Of a stretch of 64,000 bases of DNA, positions 12,892 through 55,092 are shown one piece after another (positions within the stretch are counted from its first letter, which is position 1; each line of letters opens with the position of its first letter). The stretch is from a virus: IMG/VR virus record IMGVR_UViG_3300033545_000002, positions 22,052 to 86,051 of that record. The stretch is one strand, 5' to 3'. Position numbers and translations under genes: made by a program. The notes beneath the pieces are model-generated. The model was not told the origin of the DNA. It did not search any database and saw only the letters and a list, made by a program, of their open reading frames with translations.

Positions 12892-13239
12892 TCAATAAAG
12901 AATATCTTGTAAAAAAGTGTTTTGCTGTATAAATGTATTGATTATCTGTGATATTCCGCTAGAAAAAGGGACAGCAGCGGGACGGAGGACCGTAAAAACT
13001 ATCCCTACCGCCCCTGGATTCGTGTTTATAGCTACGATTCCGCCCAAATTTCCGTTCAAAGTCTCAATCCGGTATAGGATAACCCCCGGCAACATCTCCT
13101 GAATTAAACTCTGAGAATAGGCATAAACAGCCTGCCCGGTGGCATTCGACCCCAATGAAGGTATGACCGACCGACTATCGTTGACAACGGCCATTATGAG
13201 CCTTTGGGTATCGATCTCATATTTTAGGCTATAAGTCAT
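12892..13239 (-). CDS. Small tail-module protein (115 aa)
   Basis: A beta-rich soluble protein with no recognised family. Its ATG at 13239 overlaps the stop of the giant hub protein by 4 bases (ATGA), indicating translational coupling and a shared structural role. It may be a tail or adaptor accessory protein. Confidence 0.6.
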   Translation of the reverse strand: MTYSLKYEIDTQRLIMAVVNDSRSVIPSLGSNATGQAVYAYSQSLIQEMLPGVILYRIETLNGNLGGIVAINTNPGAVGIVFTVLRPAAVPFSSGISQIINTFIQQNTFLQDILY

Positions 13240-36563: not shown

Positions 36564-37177
36564 TATATGTTGTGGGTATACATTTTAAAGGACTGAGCTT
36601 GGTAAGCAGACCAATCTATGTCTCGTTTTTCGATGCTCGAATATCCTGGGCGCTGGTTACTCAACATTGGCAGAGTGCAAAAACTCTTATTTAACGGCTG
36701 AATGAACCGCATGAGCAGAATATCGTAAGCCAGGGTGGGATTCTTTTCAATAAGGGGTACGATGAGTTTCATAGCCTCCGAGCTGTAAACTATAGCGTTA
36801 GTGGAGTACGATGAACGGATACGTAGAATATTTTGTGATACTCTTTCAGGACGCGACAATAAATTACAGGATAAGAAAAGACAGTGGTAGTCTTTCGGAA
36901 CTTGTGGCCATATTTCGTCCATTGCTGGCCAGAATGGTACAAGGAAATGATTGTCATCCTCTAAGACCAAAACATTTTTTTCTTTCTTCGCTACGGTACA
37001 AGTAAACAGTCGGTGCATTGTCAGAAGCAACCCAACTACTCCGTTTTCGTGTTCTGTCGCTTCCCATCTCGCAGACTGAATATCATGCTCCTGAAGCTCA
37101 GGCCAAATTACCTCAGTACGCTTCGCCCCAACTTCATTAGGTAGAGAGATTACAAATATTTTGTCGAAGTACTTCAT
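36563..37177 (-). CDS. Glycosyltransferase family 25-like
   Basis: A 204-residue protein beginning FDKIFVISLPNEVGAKRTEV, matching the GT25 (LPS biosynthesis) start, with the nucleotide-sugar/metal motif VLVLEDDNH near residues 69-77. GT25 enzymes add galactose or related sugars. Its ATG overlaps the FkbM gene by 4 bases (ATGA). Last gene of the glycan island. Confidence 0.8.
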   Translation of the reverse strand: MKYFDKIFVISLPNEVGAKRTEVIWPELQEHDIQSARWEATEHENGVVGLLLTMHRLFTCTVAKKEKNVLVLEDDNHFLVPFWPAMDEIWPQVPKDYHCLFLSCNLLSRPERVSQNILRIRSSYSTNAIVYSSEAMKLIVPLIEKNPTLAYDILLMRFIQPLNKSFCTLPMLSNQRPGYSSIEKRDIDWSAYQAQSFKMYTHNI

Positions 37178-37797
37178 TTTTTGACCAAAAGGGCATCACC
37201 CCAATTAGTATTACCGGCCCACATGGTTTCTACCCTCACAAGATCAAATTTAGCCAAAAATTCGTCAAGTTCTTCAATGAGAGGACAACCGACATACAGG
37301 TGCGCCTTATTGACCTCCAAATAAACCCATTTGAATTGGTTAAGCAACCCGCCCATCCCTCTCAGGGCAAACAATTCCGCCCCCTGTATATCAATGTTCA
37401 GGAAATCAAAATCATTCAACTCGCCGTTCGGAAATAAGGAATCTATCCTCCATATTTTACAAGGAATGTCCCTTGTATAGAAAACGTCCGGGTGAACGAC
37501 CTTGTGGGTTCCTAGCTCAAGTATTGAACTTGACTGCCCGGCGTTGTTCGATTCATGTAGCACAACATCCCCGTTTATATCGCCTATGCAAACATTGTAT
37601 GCCGTGGCCTCTGGATTAGATGAAATGTTACTGACCAATTTTTTATAGATGTCGGGGTTCGGCTCTATCCAAATCTGTTTTTTTACTCCAAGTTCCATAT
37701 ACACGGGAAATTCCTCCCCAATATTTCCGCCAATATGAAGCACTCCTTTCGGATGAATCTTGTATTTCGGCCAAAGACCTCTGAAATCTATAAGCAT
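37174..37797 (-). CDS. FkbM-family methyltransferase
   Basis: A 207-residue SAM-dependent methyltransferase of the FkbM type: GVLHIGGNIGEE (motif I) near residues 18-29, IEPNP acidic end of strand 2 near 44-48, and FLNIDIQGAELFAL near 132-145. FkbM enzymes O-methylate sugars and polyketides. Overlaps the GT25 gene by 4 bases and follows another methyltransferase. Acceptor unknown. Confidence 0.85.
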   Translation of the reverse strand: MLIDFRGLWPKYKIHPKGVLHIGGNIGEEFPVYMELGVKKQIWIEPNPDIYKKLVSNISSNPEATAYNVCIGDINGDVVLHESNNAGQSSSILELGTHKVVHPDVFYTRDIPCKIWRIDSLFPNGELNDFDFLNIDIQGAELFALRGMGGLLNQFKWVYLEVNKAHLYVGCPLIEELDEFLAKFDLVRVETMWAGNTNWGDALLVKK

Positions 37798-37800
37798 TTG

Positions 37801-38343
37801 TTACGGTTTACGTACCCAAAAAGAAGCCATTGCCGGTTCTTCATCAGGCACTATATTTATTTCAAGACCTTTCTCTTTGAAAAAATCGTTCACCGCCTTG
37901 TTTACCCCATAAGATAAGTTCAAATAGTCATGCCCGCTGATAATGCCACCTGAAACGACTTTGGGGAAAGATAATACCAGATCGTTCATCACATTGTAGT
38001 AGTCGTGCGCCGCGTCGATGTAAATAAGGCCAAATGTATTGTCAGGCAATAGTGGAATTTTGTCTTTCGTAAGTCCCCTCAATTCAAAAACTTTATAATC
38101 CCACGGCTTAATTCGCTGCATTGCTTCGTAGTGATTATTGTCATGCCATGATTGGTTAAACCCTCCGTCGCCAGCTTGACCAGGAATACAAGCCCAGTTG
38201 TCGATCATATAGAACACGTCCACATTCCATCCGCATATCTGCTGGCTGAATCTTCCTTCGGCGCAACCTAATTCGGCCACAATTCTAGGAAGTTTAAACT
38301 CATCCAGCAATTTACCAAGCTCCGATCTGAAATTTATTTGCAT
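37801..38343 (-). CDS. SAM-dependent methyltransferase
   Basis: A 180-residue class I methyltransferase. AELGCAEGRFS near residues 23-33 is motif I, FGLIYIDAAHDYYNV near 104-118 is the acidic motif with the usual DxxHxY, and the end has GGIISGHDYLN near 132-142. It resembles Methyltransf_24/TylF-like sugar O-methyltransferases. Starts 10 bases inside the upstream GT25-like gene. Confidence 0.82.
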   Translation of the reverse strand: MQINFRSELGKLLDEFKLPRIVAELGCAEGRFSQQICGWNVDVFYMIDNWACIPGQAGDGGFNQSWHDNNHYEAMQRIKPWDYKVFELRGLTKDKIPLLPDNTFGLIYIDAAHDYYNVMNDLVLSFPKVVSGGIISGHDYLNLSYGVNKAVNDFFKEKGLEINIVPDEEPAMASFWVRKP

Positions 38344-39119
38344 TCTACAAAGTTAAATGTTGCCGGATCAAAATCTGTTATCTTATCCTGCCACCAATAT
38401 CTTGAATTTTCAATACTTCCATTCAGCTTACTAAACCCAGAGAAGCGAGTAATCCCGGTCCCGATGTCAGATAAATTATCAATCTGTTTCACTGCCCCCG
38501 GCAAAAGGCAGTACGTCTTTAACATGGGTTGCATTCGGATCATGCTGTAGTCGATCCCTATTGAAGTCGGGATTTGGCTTTCTAAGGTGCCTAAGACCTG
38601 TTCAATGCTATTCTTGTTCACTATATAGGCATACGTGCAGAAGCAAGCCAAAGTTCTTAATATGCGAGGGTCATCTGTACGGTCTGCATCCCTGCCCAAA
38701 TCAATACCGGGCAAAAGCGGATTGTGTCCTGTGTACCAATGCGGCGGTCCGATATGCACGGTAGCTCCAAGCCAAATTATATCCCAATTCTTCCCGTCAA
38801 GATATTTTTCAAAGTACTCGATCCTTTCGTGGAAGTCTGAACAAATGTCCAAATCATCCTCCATCACGAATGCATGTTTATTAACAGACAACGCCTTTTG
38901 CATTACTCCCATTTGACTAGCATAGCATCCGCAAGCGCCAGGAGTGCGCCTTAGCATGGTCCCCCATTTATTATGATCCCATTGATGATCTCGCGTCCTT
39001 ATCGCATCAAATCGCTCTGCTTTGATCCCTACGCGCTCCAATTCTTTCTCCATTCGCTCCCGCCTGTCTGTTCGGTGCGCTAAATTTACATAGGCTATAT
39101 AGCAGTCGTCTAAAAGCAT
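38334..39119 (-). CDS. Glycosyltransferase family 25-like (second copy)
   Basis: A 261-residue GT25-type protein: CYIAYVNLAHRTDRRERM at residues 6-23 and the DxD-like motif AFVMEDDLDI near 83-92, followed by IIWLGATVH. It overlaps the methyltransferase genes on both sides by about 10 bases. Two GT25 genes in the same operon suggest different acceptors or linkages. Confidence 0.85.
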   Translation of the reverse strand: MLLDDCYIAYVNLAHRTDRRERMEKELERVGIKAERFDAIRTRDHQWDHNKWGTMLRRTPGACGCYASQMGVMQKALSVNKHAFVMEDDLDICSDFHERIEYFEKYLDGKNWDIIWLGATVHIGPPHWYTGHNPLLPGIDLGRDADRTDDPRILRTLACFCTYAYIVNKNSIEQVLGTLESQIPTSIGIDYSMIRMQPMLKTYCLLPGAVKQIDNLSDIGTGITRFSGFSKLNGSIENSRYWWQDKITDFDPATFNFVECK

Positions 39120-39679
39120 GGTACATTGTCGTTTTTAACAACAGACCAGACCCCATGCCCGTCCCTTGTGGAAGCGATATAAAGCCGGTCGGCTGGAATT
39201 ATTTCTCTTACGGCCCTGCCAACTTCCGGATTTTCGGTGGACAGTACATCATGTCCCGAAAGTATCCCATCATGGAGTAGCTTTCTGTTCCAAAGAAAAA
39301 TTTCGGCGCGGGTCTGATTATATTTATGAGAACTGTCGATAAAAATATGGTGGAAATAGCCGTCTGGGAATTTCGTGGACGCGTCAAGCGAACTCATTTC
39401 CAAAAACTCAATCTTATTCCCCAATCCGCTATTCACTAAGTTACTGATTATTTCGTTCCGCTGGCTTGCTCCTCCGTAGTCGCAATTATCAACGGCAATG
39501 AATCTTTCGATCTCTTTGCCAGCGTTCAGTATGGCTTCTGCCAAAAATATGCAACTCTTACCCGTTCCCAATCCCACTTCCACCACCCTTGCAGGTGACG
39601 GTATCCGTTCTGCAACGCTCAGGTAATACGATTCGTAATCAAACATACTTCCGCCTATTTGTGCCGAGTAATTCCGCAT
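39110..39679 (-). CDS. SAM-dependent methyltransferase (second copy)
   Basis: A 189-residue class I methyltransferase: VVEVGLGTGKSCIFLAEA near residues 32-49 is motif I, IAVDNCDYGG near 60-69 follows strand 2, and HHIFIDSSHKYNQTR near 109-123 has the DxxHxY pattern. DGILSGHDVLS near 136-146 matches the neighbouring paralogue. Starts directly before the second GT25. Confidence 0.82.
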   Translation of the reverse strand: MRNYSAQIGGSMFDYESYYLSVAERIPSPARVVEVGLGTGKSCIFLAEAILNAGKEIERFIAVDNCDYGGASQRNEIISNLVNSGLGNKIEFLEMSSLDASTKFPDGYFHHIFIDSSHKYNQTRAEIFLWNRKLLHDGILSGHDVLSTENPEVGRAVREIIPADRLYIASTRDGHGVWSVVKNDNVPCF

Positions 39680-39691
39680 AGTTAAATACTT

Positions 39692-40000
39692 TTAATTCAT
39701 CCCCGTCGATGGCCTTAATCTTGATTGAAGTTGCTCTATAGATTCGGCCATGTCTTTTTTATATCTAGGTTCGCAGTTTTCAGCGTATTCCTGTTGACCC
39801 GCGTACGTCTCAATAAGAAATCTGTTCATTACTCCCATCTGCATTTCAATTGGGATGTCTTCGAATTGCACTCCGTCCCTAAATAGATTTCGCCATACTT
39901 CTTTCTTTTGATAGCCGATTATCCATTTTTTGAAAACATCTATAGCGTAAGGGCATTTTTCCTCCATTTCTTCAAAAAACGCTTTATCCAGTCTTCCCAT
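39692..40000 (-). CDS. Hypothetical helical protein in glycan island
   Basis: A 102-residue protein from the ATG at 40000 (MGRLDKAFFEE); the longer frame would overlap the glycosyltransferase end. It is rich in Glu/Lys/Met/Gln helices and has no motif I recognise. It lies 2 bases after the CgeB-type gene ends and probably belongs to the operon. Confidence 0.6.
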   Translation of the reverse strand: MGRLDKAFFEEMEEKCPYAIDVFKKWIIGYQKKEVWRNLFRDGVQFEDIPIEMQMGVMNRFLIETYAGQQEYAENCEPRYKKDMAESIEQLQSRLRPSTGMN

Positions 40001-40002
40001 TG

Positions 40003-41157
40003 TCAAATATTTTGCTCCCACCTGAATTGAAGTGTTTTTTCGGCTCCGCATCCGCAGTCGGACCAAAAACCTTTTAGTCTCTTGCAATCACATTCCTTTA
40101 CCCCTTCGAATTCATCTCCCGGTTGACCAGGTATCACTCCGTTGATAACATGCGCTCCCGCTTTTAAACAGGCGTCTGCGTAATAGACCTCCACATCTTG
40201 CGATTTGATATTTTGGACAACACCCATCATTTCTTTTATCCTTGCTGTCCATGTGTGGTTTGCTAAAACGTATTGCCTACCCGCTTCGCCGATTCTCTTT
40301 GCAGATTCTGGCCTGGCTAAATAATATTCAATCTTTTCCTTTAGGAAATGGAAGTCGGGCCACCAATCCAGCACGTCTACATCAAACAACTTTTCTACCC
40401 CTTTAAAATGCTTTGTCAGGCAAAGTACTCCGCACATCATAGCCCTCCAAATTCTATCCGACTGGTAAAGAGTATGATTGAAATTATTGTGACAAACGAC
40501 GATAGCGGCAGATTGATAAATCTCTACTTCCTCTTTTTGACCGATCATTTTACTACCATCCCAATTGTTGCCGTATACTTTGAAATCGTCCGGGAACTCT
40601 TTCTGCAAAAACTCTACCATTTCAACCCGCTCTTTTGATAACGGGAATTGATGGTTTGTGTTCATAAAATTGTTTCCGATGAACACAACGCCTTTTCGCT
40701 CCTTAGTTTCGTCCGGCTTGTAGATGTCAGGGTCCGCACTGCTCTGTAAACACATGACGTTATTGTACCCACGCCTATTGCATTCGTCTACGTCCTCCTG
40801 ATTTGAAAAACACATTAAACCGATATGAGGAACGAGATTGTACATCCATTGTGTTTTCTCGTTGATACGAATATCGAAAGTAAAGTTGACAGTGAAAGCT
40901 ATTTTTGAAAGAGCCTGCCATGTTTCTAAGTCTATGATGTCGCTCGATTGTATTTGGGCAAAGATCAGGTCCGGCTTCATCTTCTCGGCCTCATGGATCA
41001 TCGCACGTTGCATCAAGTCTTTGCCTATCTGGTATCTTTCCAGTTGAAAATCGAAACACTTGTAATCCACAAATCCTGCCTGCATAAATCCGTCCATGAT
41101 ACCCTTGTTGGAATATCCGTTCGGAGCAATCAACGCGATATGGAAAACTTTGGTCAT
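40003..41157 (-). CDS. CgeB-type glycosyltransferase with Cys-rich tail
   Basis: The start at 41157 gives an ATGA overlap with the GT11 gene and 384 residues; four codons upstream is another ATG. The second half reads GVVFIGNN, IVVCHNNFNHTLYQSDRIWRAMMCGVLCLT and EAGRQYVLANHTWTARI, as in CgeB/glycosyltransferase 1 family proteins. The last 50 residues carry a Cys cluster (CDCKRLKGFWSDCGCG) that is not typical of the family. Donor and acceptor are unknown. Confidence 0.75.
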   Translation of the reverse strand: MTKVFHIALIAPNGYSNKGIMDGFMQAGFVDYKCFDFQLERYQIGKDLMQRAMIHEAEKMKPDLIFAQIQSSDIIDLETWQALSKIAFTVNFTFDIRINEKTQWMYNLVPHIGLMCFSNQEDVDECNRRGYNNVMCLQSSADPDIYKPDETKERKGVVFIGNNFMNTNHQFPLSKERVEMVEFLQKEFPDDFKVYGNNWDGSKMIGQKEEVEIYQSAAIVVCHNNFNHTLYQSDRIWRAMMCGVLCLTKHFKGVEKLFDVDVLDWWPDFHFLKEKIEYYLARPESAKRIGEAGRQYVLANHTWTARIKEMMGVVQNIKSQDVEVYYADACLKAGAHVINGVIPGQPGDEFEGVKECDCKRLKGFWSDCGCGAEKTLQFRWEQNI

Positions 41158-41918
41158 AACTTTATCCATTCTGGTAAAAGAATATCTTTTGTATCAACGT
41201 CCCGATTGTATTCGTCTTTCCAAAAATCTTGGAACCATTTTTTTTGAGTAATGACCAACTTATCCGGATTCCTGTTCAAATACGCTCCCCACCAAGAAAA
41301 GGTGCTACTGCTAGAAATATTACAGGCGCAACAACTAATCTCAATCAAATCTTCCTCTATACTTTTATTTTCGCTGTATTCGAAATCATAAATATGACCG
41401 AACGTCGCCTTGAAGTATGGAATGTCGTCCGAATAAACACGAAACCGTTTAATGCCCTTTGTTTCCCTTACTAGATCGATAGATGCTCTTATGTATGGCT
41501 CGTCGATCAAAATATGTTTTCCAGGTATCGTCCTGAAGTCACCAAACCTCCCGTGCAAACTACAAACATCTTCAATACATTTCCAAGGATAGTTAAACAG
41601 TTCTATAATCTTATCTCTGTACTCATCAAAGAAAAGAGGACTTTGCCAGTAACCGCGAAGGACAACCTGCAAGCCATCCCATTCTTTCTTGTACTCAATC
41701 GGCGCATGATGGAAGTGCTGCTCTACTATTTCAATGTCTTGCCTTCCTTGAACCCAGTTAGGATTTACTAAGTGTTGCAGGTAAATTGGACAATGGTATT
41801 GATCATGCGTCCGATTTGGTACGGTAAACTCTACTCCATTTTTTAATGACAGCCCTGCCGCTGTAGCAGTCTGAAATAAAAAATTCCCCATTCGACCACC
41901 GTGGATAAACCCGATCAT
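41154..41918 (-). CDS. GT11 alpha-1,2-fucosyltransferase-like protein
   Basis: A 254-residue protein with the GT11 start GRMGNFLFQTATAAGLS (compare GRLGNQLFQ) at residues 8-24 and the C-terminal signature ISSSSTFSWWGAYLNRN near 199-215. HGRFGDF near 122-128 replaces the usual HxRRGD-like motif, so the acceptor site may differ. Overlaps the oxygenase gene by 4 bases. GT11 enzymes usually transfer fucose to galactose. Confidence 0.8.
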   Translation of the reverse strand: MIGFIHGGRMGNFLFQTATAAGLSLKNGVEFTVPNRTHDQYHCPIYLQHLVNPNWVQGRQDIEIVEQHFHHAPIEYKKEWDGLQVVLRGYWQSPLFFDEYRDKIIELFNYPWKCIEDVCSLHGRFGDFRTIPGKHILIDEPYIRASIDLVRETKGIKRFRVYSDDIPYFKATFGHIYDFEYSENKSIEEDLIEISCCACNISSSSTFSWWGAYLNRNPDKLVITQKKWFQDFWKDEYNRDVDTKDILLPEWIKL

Positions 41919-42589
41919 TTAGTAAATCTTTTATAATACTCCCCTTCAACAAACTTTGTTTTGCGCGTTATACTCTCCCCTCCTGCCTCTGGATTATACT
42001 TTGAGATCGGCAACACGCGAAAATCCATAGATACGCGAGTTTTCCCGGTCTTATTAGACCTGTTTCCATGTCGGAGAACATTTCCGTCGAATTGAATAAG
42101 TCGCCCTATTTGGAGCGGTATTGGCTCAAAATCGTTCTTCCCCGGTTCGGATTCTACCCACGGGCATGCGGTATCTTTTGAATCTGTGAGCGGAATGATA
42201 AAGTTTAGTTCCCCGGCAGGGTGATGAAATTCTGCATCCGTATGGAAGTCCCCGACCGCTACGTTACCTGGAAGATGCACTCTGAAAGTCGGAAATTTTT
42301 GATAAAGGAAGTCCTCATCGAATAACGGTGCAACAACTTCCGAAACAAACCATTCGTACATCAATTCAAAATCAGGCCAACCACCTTTATACCGTTCGTA
42401 AAAACGCTCATGGAAAATGGTAGAACTGTCTTTTCCCACTTCGAACAATTCGACATGCTGTTCTATCAGAAGATGATGCAGGTCTTTCAAATGCCTTGTT
42501 CCAGGCCACTTGTTTCCCCAGAACAATAGCTCCAAGTGTTTTCCAAAATTAAATTTGGACTGCCTGAATGGGATGACGGTATATCTCAT
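41915..42589 (-). CDS. 2-oxoglutarate/Fe(II) oxygenase-like protein
   Basis: A 224-residue protein with an HxD iron motif in DFHTDAEFH (His116, Asp118), a distal His in VLRHGNRSNKTG (His174) and Arg185 in KTRVSMDFR as the likely 2-oxoglutarate anchor. The three residues needed for a facial triad are therefore present. The spacing fits sugar or antibiotic hydroxylases such as StrG-like proteins. Overlaps the GT2 gene by 4 bases. Confidence 0.78.
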   Translation of the reverse strand: MRYTVIPFRQSKFNFGKHLELLFWGNKWPGTRHLKDLHHLLIEQHVELFEVGKDSSTIFHERFYERYKGGWPDFELMYEWFVSEVVAPLFDEDFLYQKFPTFRVHLPGNVAVGDFHTDAEFHHPAGELNFIIPLTDSKDTACPWVESEPGKNDFEPIPLQIGRLIQFDGNVLRHGNRSNKTGKTRVSMDFRVLPISKYNPEAGGESITRKTKFVEGEYYKRFTK

Positions 42590-43293
42590 CTAAGTGATCT
42601 TAGTTGATGTTCAATCTGCATGTGCAAATGTCCTGAACGGTGAGCGTTTTGTTTGTAATGGGATAGGGGGTGTACGGTGTGCTGATATGTTAAGCCCTGG
42701 ACTATCTTTATTTTTCTTCCAGATTCCAGCCACCTAAATGCCATGTACAGACTGTCCGCCGTTATCGGGTCGATATCGCCACTCCACACTTCCAAATACC
42801 CCGACCTATGCACGAAATAATTTGCTGTGTTTAAAAGGGTGGCGCACATTGGCCATTCCATGTATCTCGCAATATTTTCTTTCACCAAAATAAGATCAGA
42901 AAATGTAGTGTAATCGAAATGTGGGTAGGCAAAATATGGAGCGTAAATTGTATCGGGTTGCCATTCTTCAATTTCAAAAAGTCGATCCAGATAATACGAA
43001 TTAAATACGTTATCGCTGTCAGCCAAAATATTCCACTCACAATCCGACAATTCGATGGCGTTCTTCTTGTTCCGGTAGCAGTCGACGTTGCGACCGTTCC
43101 TGAATAGCCTCACCTTACCCATTCCACCAACTGCCGCGTCCAATTCGTTGTAAGATTCCTGGCTTGAGAAGTCATCTACGATAGTTACAGAGGATACCCG
43201 ATCATCATACAACACCTGTTCAAAGGCCCTTAGCGTCCATTCGGGACGCATGTAAGTAGGTATTGCAATTCCTATAGTTCTGCCTTCGTTCAT
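42586..43293 (-). CDS. Family 2 glycosyltransferase
   Basis: A 235-residue GT-A fold protein: IGIAIPTYMRPEWTLRAFE near residues 7-25, VTIVDDFSS near 36-44, and the DxD-type NILADSDNVFNSYYL near 87-101. First gene of the glycan island and directly downstream of the pseudoknot-like leader, so its translation is the most exposed to that structure. Confidence 0.85.
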   Translation of the reverse strand: MNEGRTIGIAIPTYMRPEWTLRAFEQVLYDDRVSSVTIVDDFSSQESYNELDAAVGGMGKVRLFRNGRNVDCYRNKKNAIELSDCEWNILADSDNVFNSYYLDRLFEIEEWQPDTIYAPYFAYPHFDYTTFSDLILVKENIARYMEWPMCATLLNTANYFVHRSGYLEVWSGDIDPITADSLYMAFRWLESGRKIKIVQGLTYQHTVHPLSHYKQNAHRSGHLHMQIEHQLRSLR

Positions 43294-43301
43294 AAAACGG
43301 T

Positions 43302-43424
43302 ATCGCGTTCGAGGGTGGTTGTCTAAGAAATTAAACCTGTGAAGGAGTAAAAACTATCCGACCCTGAACGCGATTATTTTAAACTTTAAAGTTGTTGATT
43401 TTCATGTTTTAACTTCTTAGACAA
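43302..43424 (-). promoter_or_regulatory. Pseudoknot-like leader of the glycan operon
   Basis: On the minus-strand RNA, 43424-43406 can pair with 43336-43319 (11 perfect pairs plus more after a mismatch) and 43374-43362 can pair with 43315-43302 (13 pairs with one bulge). The pairs interleave, giving an H-type pseudoknot whose second stem ends eight bases before the GT2 start codon. A nine-codon mini-ORF (43405-43379, MKINNFKV) lies in the first loop. The rest of the 159-base gap shows no promoter box. Confidence 0.6.
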
Positions 43425-43452
43425 GACGAAAGTAATTAATCCTTCCAAACCG

Positions 43453-43689
43453 TCAAAATTTATTTCCTGGTTTACCGCTTGGCGCTTTTGTCTTTACAAC
43501 CGGACGGAGAATGCCATGATTCTGCCTCAACTCTCGTTCAGCCTTTCTGATCAGCGTGGCCCTATTTCCGGCATGAACAATAATCTCCGGCTCTACAATG
43601 ACACCTTCCAATTCTTCGCCTATATCCGTGATGGACATATCGAAATAGGTGGCTGTCGATGGTTGCTTTCTTCTTTTACTAGCTATCAT
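43453..43689 (-). CDS. Hypothetical protein (78 aa)
   Basis: A small basic protein with a Lys/Arg-rich start and a central acidic segment (GEELEGVIVEPEI). Overlaps the zinc-ribbon-like gene by 4 bases. No family recognised. Last gene before the leader of the glycan island. Confidence 0.55.
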   Translation of the reverse strand: MIASKRRKQPSTATYFDMSITDIGEELEGVIVEPEIIVHAGNRATLIRKAERELRQNHGILRPVVKTKAPSGKPGNKF

Positions 43690-44161: not shown

Positions 44162-44384
44162 TGCTTTCAATATTTTGAATTTTTCGATTCAAATAAAATT
44201 GTGCTTTTTTCAAGTCCTCCAATTCTTTCAGTGGGTCTTTCTTCCCTGCCCTGCATATGTATTTAACTGCATTGCCTAAATGGAACCCCAACTCCCATGC
44301 CTCAATGACTTTTATAGCCTCATAAACAGTATCCCCGCCGTAATGATTGGGGTGATTGATGGCTTCATTTTTCTTCGGTGTCAT
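44154..44384 (-). CDS. DUF3310 protein (phage nucleotide kinase-like)
   Basis: From the ATG at 44384 (MTPKKNEAINH), 76 residues. Contains NHPNHYGGDTVYEAIKVIEA and GNAVKYICRAGKKD...DLKKAQFYL, the hallmark of DUF3310. This small helical family is common in phages and its biochemical role is not clear. Overlaps ThyX by 20 bases. Confidence 0.85.
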   Translation of the reverse strand: MTPKKNEAINHPNHYGGDTVYEAIKVIEAWELGFHLGNAVKYICRAGKKDPLKELEDLKKAQFYLNRKIQNIESNA

Positions 44385-45078
44385 ATAGTGCCTTTGCGAT
44401 ATTAGGGAATTTTTCAATAAATATTTTCTTTATTTCAGCAGCAACCTCCCTATGTTCCAATTGTGCATGGTGATCCGTTCTCTGTTCAAGATAATGAATC
44501 CAGCTACGGACGCTCCCATTGAGATACATAGTTGTGCTACTAGCCATTGGAAGAATCATACGGGCACATTCTTTAGCTACACCAGCCTCCAACAAGCCAC
44601 GATACACATCTTGAACAATTTGCATCAAAGCATCAACAACAACCGACGCACGTGTATTATGATCCGTATGAAGTAATAAACCATGAGGAATATAGTTTTC
44701 GCCAATAGCCGGGTCAAATCTATCTTCACTGCTTTGCCTATTTGTAGCACCGGCCCTTCTAAATTGAATATCCTCCCTCTCCATCACTTCCGCATACCGC
44801 TGGCTAAATTCCTGCGGCTTAATGGACCAGTGACGAAGAATTTGAATGGCTATAGCCTTTGAGGTTTTTACCTCTACCGTCATGTTCACCATGTCAAAGG
44901 GAGACCAGTGTTTGTTTTTGATAAGATATTTTAACAATTTGGAGGCCGTATCCATATTCCCCTGATTCTGCGGACTACTAACGCGTGCCATATAAACAAT
45001 CAGGTCTTCGGCAGAATTAATATTCCAATCAATTGATGAAACTGTAGGTGTTGTAACAGAGACTAATTTTACGTGCAT
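44365..45078 (-). CDS. thyX: Flavin-dependent thymidylate synthase ThyX
   Basis: A 237-residue ThyX. The signature motif appears as RHWSIKPQEFSQRY (residues 82-95), where the third residue of the usual RHRX7S is Trp instead of Arg. Other ThyX-like stretches include WSPFDMVNMT near 58-67 and CARMILPMASSTTMY near 167-181. Makes dTMP from dUMP with flavin and folate, feeding phage DNA synthesis. The Trp change is seen in other ThyX-like proteins as far as I recall. Confidence 0.88.
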   Translation of the reverse strand: MHVKLVSVTTPTVSSIDWNINSAEDLIVYMARVSSPQNQGNMDTASKLLKYLIKNKHWSPFDMVNMTVEVKTSKAIAIQILRHWSIKPQEFSQRYAEVMEREDIQFRRAGATNRQSSEDRFDPAIGENYIPHGLLLHTDHNTRASVVVDALMQIVQDVYRGLLEAGVAKECARMILPMASSTTMYLNGSVRSWIHYLEQRTDHHAQLEHREVAAEIKKIFIEKFPNIAKALYDTEEK

Positions 45079-49883: not shown

Positions 49884-52058
49884 TTACTTGAATAGTAATT
49901 GCTGCCTGTTTCCTTGTTCAGCAGCGCGACAATTTCTGATAGCAAGGTCGAAATAGCTTTTCTTCAATTCAAAACCAATTCCATTTCGTCCCATTTTGAT
50001 AGCCTGAAATACTTCGCTTCCAATGCCCATAAAAGGCGTCAGGATCGTATCTCCTTTGTTTGACCATAAGGTAATCGTTCGTTCGATTGTCTGTAACTGA
50101 AGCGGCGCAATATGTTTCTCGTCGGCTTCCCCACGGCCTTCTCTCCCATTCAACGTATCGCCGTAGTCAATGTCCATCCACACAGGGGATGCGTATTGTT
50201 GCCATGTATCGACGGATATTTCACATTTCACCGGATGTTCGTGTTCACCTGGTTTTCTGAACACCAGTAAGTAGTCTGGTATTCCGACCCGGCTCATGGC
50301 AGCATCTTTTTTAACCTGCTTATGAAGTAATCCTAATGCTTTAGTCCGCTGCATCTCCGTGACTGGATTTTTCCAAATTGTCACTCTGGAATGATAAATA
50401 AATCCAACATCTTCGAATGACTGTCGGATCATATTTGAAAAATCACGCAATCCAATATACCCTTCTTTACCTTTTTGGATGGGCAAATCCATACAATGAA
50501 CAACTACATTCCGGCCGGACCACATGATCCTATGAAGTTCTTTTGCCAAAAAATTGAAAGCTATGAAAAACTCTTTGTAGTCTTTGCTATTACCCATATC
50601 TTCCAATTCGTCACTGTAAACATATAATTCAGAAAACGGGGGAGAAAATATTGACAGACCAATGCTTTCGTCAGGAATATTTTTAATCAACTGAACACAA
50701 TCGCCCAATTGTATTTTAAAGTTATTGCCGATTTCCTCCTGAAATTGTCGTTCCATTTTTTCTTTTGATTTTAATTTTCGGTTGACGGCTTTAGTCATTT
50801 CCTCTTGCATTTGCTCGAATTGTCGCTCCTTTTCTCTCAATATCCGACCAACGTTTTGCATGGTATCGGTAGTGACTAGATAGACATTCACCTGATCTTT
50901 TTGGCCAAAGCGCCAAGATCGACGAATGGATTGGAATACTGCCTCAAATGAGAAGTCGGGGGCAGCGAATATTTGGTTATGGCAATTTTGAAAATTAAGC
51001 CCGGCTCCGGCGATTTTGCTCTTAGTGAGTAGCACCCGTATCTTTCCAAGTGCAAAATCGGATAACTTTTCTTCCTTCCACTCTACAGTGTCACTACCAC
51101 GAACCTCAACTGCATCAGGAATTAGGCGTTTCAATTCATCGCCTTCCTCATTCTGCTTTATCCAAATCAAAAAAGTTTCATCTGATCCGTTGACAATATC
51201 AGCAACTTTAGAAAGTCTTTTATCCTTAGTCCTGCGTAATTCTTGATTAAATGATGTTGCCGAAACCGCTGAATCATTGAACAACATCCCGTTATCCTTT
51301 TTGTCAGTTTCGATTTGAAGTTCGATGAAATTTAATGGTGGCAAATCATACCCGGATTGCTCAAACCCAATGTCAGAAGGCTTTTGGAACATAATGGCCC
51401 ACGTACTTACCCATTCCCAAAACACACGATTGCTATGGCCTTTTAGCCGCCATTTATTCGTTTCGCCGCCGTCATGGACAAAATACATAGCCAGCATTTC
51501 CGAACGCGGCATTACATCTAAAAACTCGCTGTAATTGCCAATCTCCATCGGGCTGTTCGGCGAAGGAGTGGCCGACCATACGGATTTATACGGAGTTCTT
51601 TTGAATAAGTCAATAATTTGATTCCGATAAGCCCCTTCATGGTTTTTGAGTATGCTGCCCTCATCTAATACAATGCCAGAAAATTCAGGAATCCAATCAA
51701 CGATGTTATCCAATTGGTCATAGTTGATAATGTATATTCCCATCTTTGGCGGTCGTGTTAACTTTTCTACGGGAATATGGATGTTCTTACCTTCTGTAAT
51801 TGTTTGAGAAGAAACTGCCAACGGAGCCATGATTAGGACAGGAGCATTCGTATGGTCAACAACCGCCTGTGCCCACCTTAACTGCATTCTGCTTTTCCCC
51901 GTTCCTGTCCCGCTGAACACTCCGTATTTCCCGGCAGACAAAGACTTATTAACAATAAAATTCTGGAAAGGAAACAAAAATGAACTATTGATATTGGCCT
52001 CAAACCCGCTATGAATATGCTCTTTTCGTTTTGTTTCCAGGAACTGTTCGTAGGTCAC
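49884..52058 (-). CDS. Fused SNF2-type helicase and DNA methyltransferase
   Basis: A 724-residue fusion with a GTG start that overlaps the preceding stop (GTGA). N-terminal helicase: Walker A FSGTGTGKSRM (50-56 core), DEAD-like LDEG (131-134), motif VI QSIRRSWRFGQKDQV near 390. C-terminal methyltransferase: FSPPF near 480, PFMGIGSE at 675-682, giving the beta-class N6-adenine/N4-cytosine order (IV before I). The protein ends RQQLLFK, a clamp-binding-like QxxLF. May modify phage DNA against restriction, with helicase-driven access; unlike typical stand-alone methyltransferases. Confidence 0.82.
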   Translation of the reverse strand: MTYEQFLETKRKEHIHSGFEANINSSFLFPFQNFIVNKSLSAGKYGVFSGTGTGKSRMQLRWAQAVVDHTNAPVLIMAPLAVSSQTITEGKNIHIPVEKLTRPPKMGIYIINYDQLDNIVDWIPEFSGIVLDEGSILKNHEGAYRNQIIDLFKRTPYKSVWSATPSPNSPMEIGNYSEFLDVMPRSEMLAMYFVHDGGETNKWRLKGHSNRVFWEWVSTWAIMFQKPSDIGFEQSGYDLPPLNFIELQIETDKKDNGMLFNDSAVSATSFNQELRRTKDKRLSKVADIVNGSDETFLIWIKQNEEGDELKRLIPDAVEVRGSDTVEWKEEKLSDFALGKIRVLLTKSKIAGAGLNFQNCHNQIFAAPDFSFEAVFQSIRRSWRFGQKDQVNVYLVTTDTMQNVGRILREKERQFEQMQEEMTKAVNRKLKSKEKMERQFQEEIGNNFKIQLGDCVQLIKNIPDESIGLSIFSPPFSELYVYSDELEDMGNSKDYKEFFIAFNFLAKELHRIMWSGRNVVVHCMDLPIQKGKEGYIGLRDFSNMIRQSFEDVGFIYHSRVTIWKNPVTEMQRTKALGLLHKQVKKDAAMSRVGIPDYLLVFRKPGEHEHPVKCEISVDTWQQYASPVWMDIDYGDTLNGREGRGEADEKHIAPLQLQTIERTITLWSNKGDTILTPFMGIGSEVFQAIKMGRNGIGFELKKSYFDLAIRNCRAAEQGNRQQLLFK

Positions 52059-54190: not shown

Positions 54191-54346
54191 ATGGCAGATA
54201 CGAAACAAATAAGCGCGACCATTGACGGAGATTTAGCAGAATGGGTGGCTACTGAGGCAAAGGCAGATCGGCGCACGTTTAGTGAAATGGTGGGTATTTT
54301 ATTGGAGGAGGCAAAAGCTAAACGGGAAAAATTAGTGAAGAAATGA
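54191..54346 (+). CDS. Ribbon-helix-helix protein (51 aa)
   Basis: A short frame starting MADTKQISATIDGDLAEW: a beta-strand (QISATID) then helices, the Arc/RHH pattern, with LLEEAKAKREKLVKK at the end. Its stop overlaps the next ATG (ATGA). First gene of the plus-strand accessory operon, so it may regulate that operon or the divergent genes. Confidence 0.7.
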   Translation: MADTKQISATIDGDLAEWVATEAKADRRTFSEMVGILLEEAKAKREKLVKK

Positions 54347-55092
54347 AAACGCCTCCTAAACATTGGCAAAACACCAGCTTGCAGCACATTCCCGGCGAAC
54401 GATGGACAGACTGCATATTCATAGACACTAATGGGAAAAGTTACGATTACGGTGACTTATATAAGGTTTCAACGATGGGGCGAGTGAAGAATACTCCGCA
54501 TTTGCATAAAATCAGAAAGGATTGTACTATCCCGGTCAAAGAAAGAATAATGAGGCCAGACAATTTAAATGGGACTGATTATTTGAGAGTTAGGCTCACT
54601 AAAAATGGTAAAAGCAGCGCGCTCTTGGTACATAGACTCGTTATGCTTTGCTTTACAGAAAAAATACCGGGGAAAGACAAGGTTAACCATAAAAAGGGTG
54701 TCAAGTGGGATAATAGGCTAAAAATGCTAGAATGGTCCGATCATCCTGAGAATATTCAACACGCATATGACACCGGATTGCATCATGGCAGGCCGGGCGA
54801 AGAAAGCGCGATGGCTAAAATTGACAACAAAACAGCATTGTTGATATTCGATTCTGCTGGTACGCAACATGAGATAGCCATAAAGTTCAATGTCAGTCGT
54901 AGTGTAGTATGCGCCATTAAAAGAGGGGCAACTTGGGGAAAAATAACTAATAAACAACTAGTTAAGGAAAGATTCCCACTATCTACAAGTGATATTTTGG
55001 CTATAAGATTATCTAATAAATTAGCCACGGATTTAGCCAAACAGTATAAAAAATCGGTCAAGTTAATAAGATTGATAAGAAATGCCGTATAA
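54343..55092 (+). CDS. NUMOD4-HNH-type endonuclease
   Basis: A 249-residue protein: a NUMOD4-like start (ERWTDCIF...YKVSTMGRVKN), an HNH segment (LLVHRLVMLCF...KDKVNHKKGVKWDNRLKMLEW) and an HTH-like end (TQHEIAIKFNVSRSVVCAIKRG). Similar proteins are often free-standing homing endonucleases. Overlaps RHH by 4 bases and NinG by 11. Confidence 0.82.
   Translation: MKTPPKHWQNTSLQHIPGERWTDCIFIDTNGKSYDYGDLYKVSTMGRVKNTPHLHKIRKDCTIPVKERIMRPDNLNGTDYLRVRLTKNGKSSALLVHRLVMLCFTEKIPGKDKVNHKKGVKWDNRLKMLEWSDHPENIQHAYDTGLHHGRPGEESAMAKIDNKTALLIFDSAGTQHEIAIKFNVSRSVVCAIKRGATWGKITNKQLVKERFPLSTSDILAIRLSNKLATDLAKQYKKSVKLIRLIRNAV

What the first reader, a model, noticed from the sequence alone, without database searches (positions are those of the whole stretch)
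43302..43424. H-type pseudoknot leader in front of a phage glycan operon
Seen: two interleaved inverted repeats (17-18 base and 13-base stems) in the gap before the GT2 gene, arranged B' A' B A on the minus-strand RNA, with A ending eight bases before the start codon and a nine-codon mini-ORF in the loop. Known: pseudoknots in phage leaders (for example T2 gene 32) control translation. Inferred: the element controls translation of the glycosyltransferase operon.
Basis: partly seen in the sequence, partly recalled or inferred. Interest (0 to 1): 0.75.

Follow-up and report, generated by a model that had tools for sequence, protein, structure and literature searches.

The report
Knotted RNA leader before phage sugar genes
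The start of this phage's sugar-transfer gene message can fold into a long knot-like RNA shape, and some distantly related phages keep the same shape in the same place with different letters, which suggests a working but undescribed switch for these genes.

Summary
In the 159-nt gap before the GT2 gene (42586-43293, minus) two stems interleave: A (43424-43408 with 43335-43319; 17 bp, one G.U) and B (43374-43361 with 43316-43302; 9+5 bp around a bulge). B ends 8 nt before the AUG. No shuffle of its own leader (0 of 20,000) or of the window's minus strand (0 of 240) scores as high.

The decisive evidence is comparative. Four other phage records have the same A1-B1-A2-B2 order directly before a GT2 gene, with different stem sequences. 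In three phages (window, L092, L180) the core is 123, 123 and 121 nt long. Two further leaders (L194, L182) can be aligned: 18 of 19 pairs kept, two double compensatory changes. In four of five a Bacteroides-type promoter ends 2-5 nt before A1, putting A1 at the mRNA 5' end (inferred).

Likely function: gating of translation on an SD-less mRNA. B2 covers the A-rich site at -11 to -13 in three of five; all five starts have U at -1 and -3. A terminator/attenuator reading remains open. No Rfam match. Function is inferred, not shown.

The parts
43454..43457 (-). putative promoter -33 element TTTG
   Evidence: TTTG-N19-TACTTTCG found (there 45 of 2000 shuffles of the whole gap held a match somewhere); fixed just before A1, 3 of 2000 shuffles of the preceding 45 nt reach its score; same spacing in L092, L180 and L194
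43427..43434 (-). putative promoter -7 element TACTTTCG (consensus TAnnTTTG, one mismatch)
   Evidence: consensus from PMC7366714 (passages)
43408..43424 (-). A1: 5' strand of stem A, with 2 nt between it and the -7 element, so probably at the mRNA 5' end (inferred)
43375..43407 (-). loop 1, 33 nt
   Evidence: loop 1 is 34 nt in L092 and 38 nt in L180
43379..43405 (-). mini-ORF in loop 1 (MKINNFKV, stop); not conserved as a peptide
43361..43374 (-). B1: 5' strand of stem B
43336..43360 (-). loop 2, 25 nt
43319..43335 (-). A2: 3' strand of stem A
43302..43316 (-). B2: 3' strand of stem B, positions -9 to -23 of the start codon
43294..43301 (-). 8-nt spacer ACCGUUUU before the AUG
42586..43293 (-). 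GT2 glycosyltransferase (PF00535), first gene after the leader
   Evidence: E 2.6e-10
37174..42589 (-). downstream glycan genes: GT11-like, Glyco_trans_1_2, GT25-like, Methyltransf_24 (two), FkbM methyltransferase and an unassigned 224-aa protein

Best explanation
This is a cis-acting 5' leader RNA of a phage glycosyltransferase operon. Transcription probably starts at A1 (inferred from the promoter). The transcript folds so that A1, the mRNA 5' end, pairs with A2, and B1 in the loop pairs with B2, which follows A2 almost without a gap and ends 8-10 nt before the AUG in three phages. In these Bacteroidota-type mRNAs without Shine-Dalgarno sequence, initiation depends on an open, A-rich stretch about 11-14 nt before the AUG and on A at -3. 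Here that stretch is inside helix B and -1 and -3 are U, so the first glycosyltransferase would be poorly translated until the knot is opened. Shown: the pairing potential, its recurrence in five phage records, the position, and compensatory change in one alignable pair. Inferred: the Bacteroidota host, that the RNA forms both stems at once, that it represses, and that something (phage factor, ribosome in the leader, timing) relieves it; the trigger is unknown.
For: Window: 0 of 20,000 leader shuffles and 0 of 240 shuffles of the minus strand score as high. Same architecture before GT2 genes in L092 (0 of 20,000), L180 (0 of 20,000; two 14-bp stems), L194 (2 of 20,000) and L182 (92 of 20,000). 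Core lengths 123, 123 and 121 nt and spacers to the AUG of 8, 10 and 9 nt in window, L092 and L180 with different stem sequences. L194 versus L182: 18 of 19 pairs kept, two G-C to A-U double changes, one C-G to U-G; sliding the partner by 1-3 columns drops paired cells from 97% to 26-53%. In a screen of 1594 gene starts of 14 phage records the three best are GT2 leaders (window, L180, L194) and L092's ties for fourth with two other genes (rule tuned on known cases). Promoter TTTG-N19-TA just before A1 in window, L092, L180 and L194 (3, 1, 0 and 0 of 2000 shuffles). All five starts have U at -1 and -3 against 76 of 692 starts. In F. johnsoniae A at -3, -6, -12, -13 promotes initiation and structure near the start tunes it (PMC6847099, passages). 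G.U pairs in the window's stem A and L182's stem B exist only in the sense RNA.
Against: No expression or probing data. L200's (=L179's) GT2, 49% identical, has a 113-nt gap with no such pairing (5575 of 20,000 shuffles as good), and L206's GT2 lies close behind a promoter-like site with no such leader. L182 is the weakest case: 92 of 20,000 shuffles, no -33 box, and in the screen it only ties with unrelated genes. In L194 and L182 B2 lies farther from the AUG (23 and 13 nt) and leaves -11 to -13 free, and A2 and B2 are 15-16 nt apart. Rough energies do not favour the knot over the best nested fold in L092 (-36.8 against -39.4) and L182 (-22.8 against -23.6). Two-sequence covariation does not stand out in the shuffle control (123 of 500). 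Stems over one helical turn may be hard to form together. U-runs after B2 fit a terminator as well.
Confidence: 0.5

Rival explanations
1. Transcription attenuator: B plus the U-run before the AUG is an intrinsic terminator, and A (or a ribosome or factor on A1 or loop 1) decides whether it forms.
For: B is G+C-rich (0.57-0.78); a T-run of 5 or more lies in the last 24 nt in 4 of 5 leaders against 6.9% of 793 starts; it follows B2 directly in L180 and after 2 nt in L092.
Against: The window itself has only four T, 4 nt after B2; B1 and B2 are 44, 50 and 41 nt apart in window, L092 and L180, long for a terminator; no NusG-type gene (PF02357) at E 0.001 in 14 phage records, some of them fragments.
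Confidence: 0.22
2. 5'-end protection: pairing of the terminal A1 shields the mRNA from 5'-end-dependent decay; effect on translation is secondary.
For: Only 2-5 nt lie between the -7 element and A1 in all five leaders.
Against: Does not explain B, nor the near-constant distance from B2 to the AUG in three phages; no decay data.
Confidence: 0.12
3. Leader-peptide switch: a ribosome on the short ORF after A1 melts A and covers B1, opening the GT2 start.
For: An AUG lies 2-8 nt after A1 in 4 of 5 leaders; in the window the ORF fills loop 1 almost exactly.
Against: L092 has no AUG there; L180 has AUG-UAA; the L194 and L182 peptides are in different frames (by eye), so no peptide is conserved.
Confidence: 0.09
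4. DNA-level or chance inverted repeats with no RNA role.
For: The crude energy score finds comparable pairs in 61 of 200 shuffles of the window's minus strand.
Against: Recurrence before GT2 genes in five phage records, strand-specific G.U pairs, compensatory changes, fixed lengths.
Confidence: 0.04

Closest known systems
T4/RB69 gene 32 translational operator (pseudoknot bound by gp32)
   Same: Phage mRNA leader with a pseudoknot 5' of the start of a gene it is thought to control; sequence diverges among phages.
   Different: That pseudoknot is about 28 nt and is followed by more than 40 nt of less structured RNA with the ribosome site, and is bound by the gene's own product (PMC535899, passages). 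Here each stem strand spans 9-19 nt, B2 lies 8-23 nt from the AUG, there is no SD-like site, and the gene is a glycosyltransferase.
Ribosomal-protein operators with pseudoknots (S15 rpsO, L20 rpmI; recalled, listing only)
   Same: Interleaved pairing close to the start codon, thought to block or trap the initiating ribosome.
   Different: Those depend on a ribosomal protein ligand and on SD-based initiation (recalled); no Rfam family matches here and no ligand is known.
Intrinsic-terminator attenuators and processive antitermination leaders of glycan operons (UpxY, LoaP; listing only)
   Same: A structured leader before a polysaccharide gene cluster; B plus U-run resembles a terminator in L180 and L092.
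   Different: No NusG-type protein found in 14 phage records, very long B loop, weak U-run in the window.
Translational attenuators with leader peptides (erm, tetQ; recalled)
   Same: Short ORF inside a structured leader.
   Different: No conserved peptide; one of five leaders has no AUG in that loop.

Membership tests
H-type RNA pseudoknot | two stems in A1-B1-A2-B2 order | tested here: met
   window and four other leaders
H-type RNA pseudoknot | both stems formed in one molecule | not testable with these tools
   only rough energy sums: knot favoured in window, L180 and L194; not in L092 or L182
T4 gene 32 type operator | small pseudoknot well upstream, followed by less structured repeats and a ribosome site | tested here: not met
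   stems are longer, B2 lies 8 nt from the AUG in the window, no SD-like site at this start by eye
T4 gene 32 type operator | the controlled gene encodes a single-strand binding protein that represses it | tested here: not met
   the gene is a PF00535 glycosyltransferase; repression itself was not tested
Known Rfam RNA family (riboswitches included) | match above gathering score | tested here: not met
   no match in the window; two chance-level hits at E 2 and 3.9 in 43200-43520
Intrinsic terminator / attenuator | G+C-rich stem followed at once by a U-run | tested here: inconclusive
   met in L180 and L092, the run comes 4 and 8 nt after B2 in L194 and L182, weak in the window
Leader-peptide attenuator | conserved upstream ORF | tested here: not met
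   AUG absent from this loop in L092, peptides unlike each other
sigma-ABfr type promoter | TTTG about -33 and TAnnTTTG about -7 | tested here: met
   TTTG-N19 with one mismatch in the -7 box in window, L092, L180 and L194; L182 has a perfect -7 only; activity not tested

The most novel reading that the evidence does not exclude
A new class of phage regulatory RNA: a long 5'-terminal pseudoknot whose stems exceed a helical turn, possible because A1 is the free 5' end and can thread through the loop of B, and which is built to gate SD-less initiation by burying the A-rich ribosome site. Architecture is conserved while the stem sequence is free to change, so sequence-based RNA searches miss it.
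Probability: 0.3. Interest if true: 0.78.

Novelty: new variant of a known kind. Interest (0 to 1): 0.6.

Why it matters
How single genes are regulated at translation in Bacteroidota, whose mRNAs lack Shine-Dalgarno sites, is to my knowledge little explored. A leader that buries the A-rich initiation site gives a direct test. Because the fold and the spacing are kept while the letters change, families of this kind can escape covariance-model libraries; a screen for promoter plus interleaved stems plus start codon may find more. It also suggests that these phages control their surface- or virion-sugar genes after transcription starts.

Tried and rejected
Closest relatives by sequence: no match of the GT2 region in phages by DNA or of the GT2 by protein, none by GT2 peptides in viral contigs, none with the A2-B2 junction as exact 21-base pattern, none of 50 records (49 found by thyX, of 80 thyX loci held, plus L082) holds the GT2. 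Neighbour gene 41915-42589 led to one record with a different gene upstream. Terminase peptides found nothing. A GT2 alignment found only L092's record again in viral contigs, and no GT2 of L180 or L194 type is in phages.

Rejected candidates: L181 17527 (strands inside a coding gene), the L175 hits near 12938 (mostly inside genes), L179/L200 (no architecture), L206 and L253 (no leader). The single genome scan gave 4 bacterial GT2 relatives: L255 showed no such leader upstream of its farthest in-frame ATG, L254 and L256 had no in-frame ATG upstream of the match, and L257 was not looked at. Riboswitch reading: no Rfam match, no conserved loop sequence seen by eye. HDV-, group I- or type III antitoxin-like folds: considered from memory only. 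PADLOC: no match for three proteins.

Limits of my own screens: the rule was set after L092 had been seen (before L180, L194, L182), and there the window itself was not a hit, because its 9-bp B core lies 8 nt from A2. So the rankings are partly circular; the shuffle counts are the better test. In one search (3054 starts) window 36 and L180 35 exceed all shuffles (five per start; best 29), L194 27 does not, and L092 25 ties with two unrelated genes. Nine loci were dropped there as duplicates. Of the 14 records, one (G102) was scanned only to 16,000 of 32,046 bases and one (G051) lacks about 0.9 kb. Backgrounds are ORF lists, not curated genes. The promoter motif over the whole window is only mildly enriched (15 and 14 hits on the two strands; shuffles of the minus strand mean 8.7, sd 2.6). 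Literature: searches listed no description of such a leader in the titles and abstract beginnings shown (6-10 papers shown per search, of up to 114); only open-access papers are held.

Full report
What is there. The 159-nt gap between the small ORF 43453-43689 and the GT2 gene 42586-43293 (PF00535, E 2.6e-10) holds two interleaved inverted repeats on the minus-strand RNA. A1 43424-43408 pairs with A2 43335-43319 (17 bp, one G.U). B1 43374-43361 pairs with B2 43316-43302 (9 bp, bulged C, 5 bp). Loop 1 is 33 nt, loop 2 is 25 nt, A2 and B2 are 2 nt apart, and B2 ends 8 nt before the AUG.

Chance. By a score that rewards Watson-Crick pairs the element is first on the minus strand of the 64-kb window (28; next 21) and 0 of 240 block-shuffled copies reach it. 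Shuffling the 140 nt before the ATG, 0 of 20,000 reach 29. A cruder energy score was not decisive (61 of 200 shuffled copies), and nested folding gives z -2.33.

Setting. The window lies in an 86,051-base virus record. Most of the gene starts listed show no Shine-Dalgarno-like site by eye, starts in this and related records are A-rich upstream, and the terminase is distantly like those of Cellulophaga, Maribacter and Flavobacterium phages, so a Bacteroidota host is likely (inferred). Downstream genes are glycosyltransferases and methyltransferases.

Relatives. Direct searches for the GT2 failed. An alignment of the primase-helicase found L092 and L093 (both 63% identity) and, refined, L175-L199. 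L093 has no such cluster near its primase. L092 has a partly syntenic cluster with a GT2 36% identical. In the 137-nt gap before it lie A1 (8+8 bp around a 3x3 loop), B1, A2, 1 nt, B2 (10 bp), 10 nt, ATG. L180 (GT2 38%) has two perfect 14-bp stems in the same order, 1 nt between A2 and B2, 9 nt to the ATG. L194 and L182, in more distant records (primase 36-37%) and with another GT2 type (44% identical to each other), have 11+9 and 9+10 bp stems with a 15-16-nt spacer between A2 and B2. Own-leader shuffles reaching the score: L092 0, L180 0, L194 2, L182 92 of 20,000 each; L200 (the L179 phage), without the architecture, 5575 of 20,000.

Conservation of form, not letters. In window, L092 and L180 the core from A1 to B2 is 123, 123 and 121 nt, and B2 is 8, 10 and 9 nt from the AUG, though stem sequences differ. 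L194 and L182 can be aligned: 18 of 19 pairs kept, two double changes, one G.U. With two sequences the shuffle control is weak (123 of 500), but sliding the partner by 1-3 columns lowers paired cells from 97% to 26-53%.

Specificity. A screen of 2391 starts, with a rule set after L092 was seen but before L180, L194 and L182 were, put L092's GT2 first (score 18; one of at most 4782 shuffled starts scored higher, 19). In 1594 starts of 14 phage records, with a rule tuned on the known cases, the three best are GT2 leaders (window 36, L180 35, L194 27); L092's scores 25, tied with two genes not known to be glycosyltransferases, and L182's scores 19 and does not stand out. Of 13 related records 10 have PF00535 matches, and of 50 more distant ones 1. 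Of 14 GT2 loci listed, six have a gap of 100 nt or more before the gene; with the window that makes seven, and five of the seven have the architecture. L200 lacks it, and L206 (start codon uncertain) lies close behind a promoter-like TATCTTTG. The other eight have gaps under 100 nt or overlap the previous ORF.

Promoter. In window, L092, L180 and L194 the sequence TTTG-N19-TAnnTTnn ends 2-5 nt before A1; 3, 1, 0 and 0 of 2000 shuffles of the preceding 45 nt score as well. L182 has a perfect TACGTTTG 4 nt before A1 without the -33 box. This is the B. fragilis sigma-ABfr consensus; in F. johnsoniae only the -7 box was confirmed (PMC7366714, passages). A1 is therefore probably the 5' end of the mRNA. 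Over the whole window the motif is only mildly enriched.

Start region. In 692 ORF starts of these records A is enriched at -11 to -13 (0.51-0.59) and at -3 (0.47); all five leaders have T at -1 and -3, against 76 of 692, and in window, L092 and L180 positions -11 to -13 are inside B2. In F. johnsoniae A at -3, -6, -12 and -13 promotes initiation and secondary structure near the start tunes it (PMC6847099, passages). Hence the preferred reading: the leader holds the first glycosyltransferase start in a poorly initiating state. What relieves it is unknown.

Alternatives. Runs of five or more T lie in the last 24 nt in 4 of 5 leaders against 6.9% of 793 starts, so B could be a terminator; the window's own run is weak and the B loop long (41-50 nt in window, L092 and L180). 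No NusG-type gene was found in 14 records. The mini-ORF is not conserved. Stems of this length exceed a helical turn; a free 5' end at A1 would allow threading (inference).

Known kinds. No Rfam family matches. The gene 32 operator differs in size, position and gene (PMC535899, passages). Five literature searches listed no such leader. I file it as a new variant of a known kind, a pseudoknot-type regulatory leader, with function inferred.

Noticed in passing
L092 13435-14166 and 16268-17437; L181 14049-14900: Homing-endonuclease-like ORFs (NUMOD4/HNH- and GIY-YIG-like by eye, not scanned) sit in or beside relatives' glycosyltransferase clusters, suggesting mobility of these operons.
   Followed up: no
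window 49884-52058: SNF2/helicase-type domains and an N6/N4 DNA methylase domain in one 724-aa protein.
   Followed up: no
window 54343-55092, +: ORF with a NUMOD4 motif, a free-standing homing endonuclease candidate at a strand switch.
   Followed up: no
window 44365-45078: ThyX (PF02511) with relatives of up to 71% identity in viral contigs; of 19 window genes compared with 80 such loci, nine loci share a second gene, mostly the DUF3310 neighbour, so it may be exchanged between phages.
   Followed up: partly
window 43382-43393: Perfect 12-bp palindrome AACTTTAAAGTT inside loop 1; could be a small hairpin or a DNA-binding site.
   Followed up: no
L206 (record G108): GT2 gene directly behind a TATCTTTG box, i.e. 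perhaps a nearly leaderless version of the same kind of gene; start codon uncertain.
   Followed up: partly
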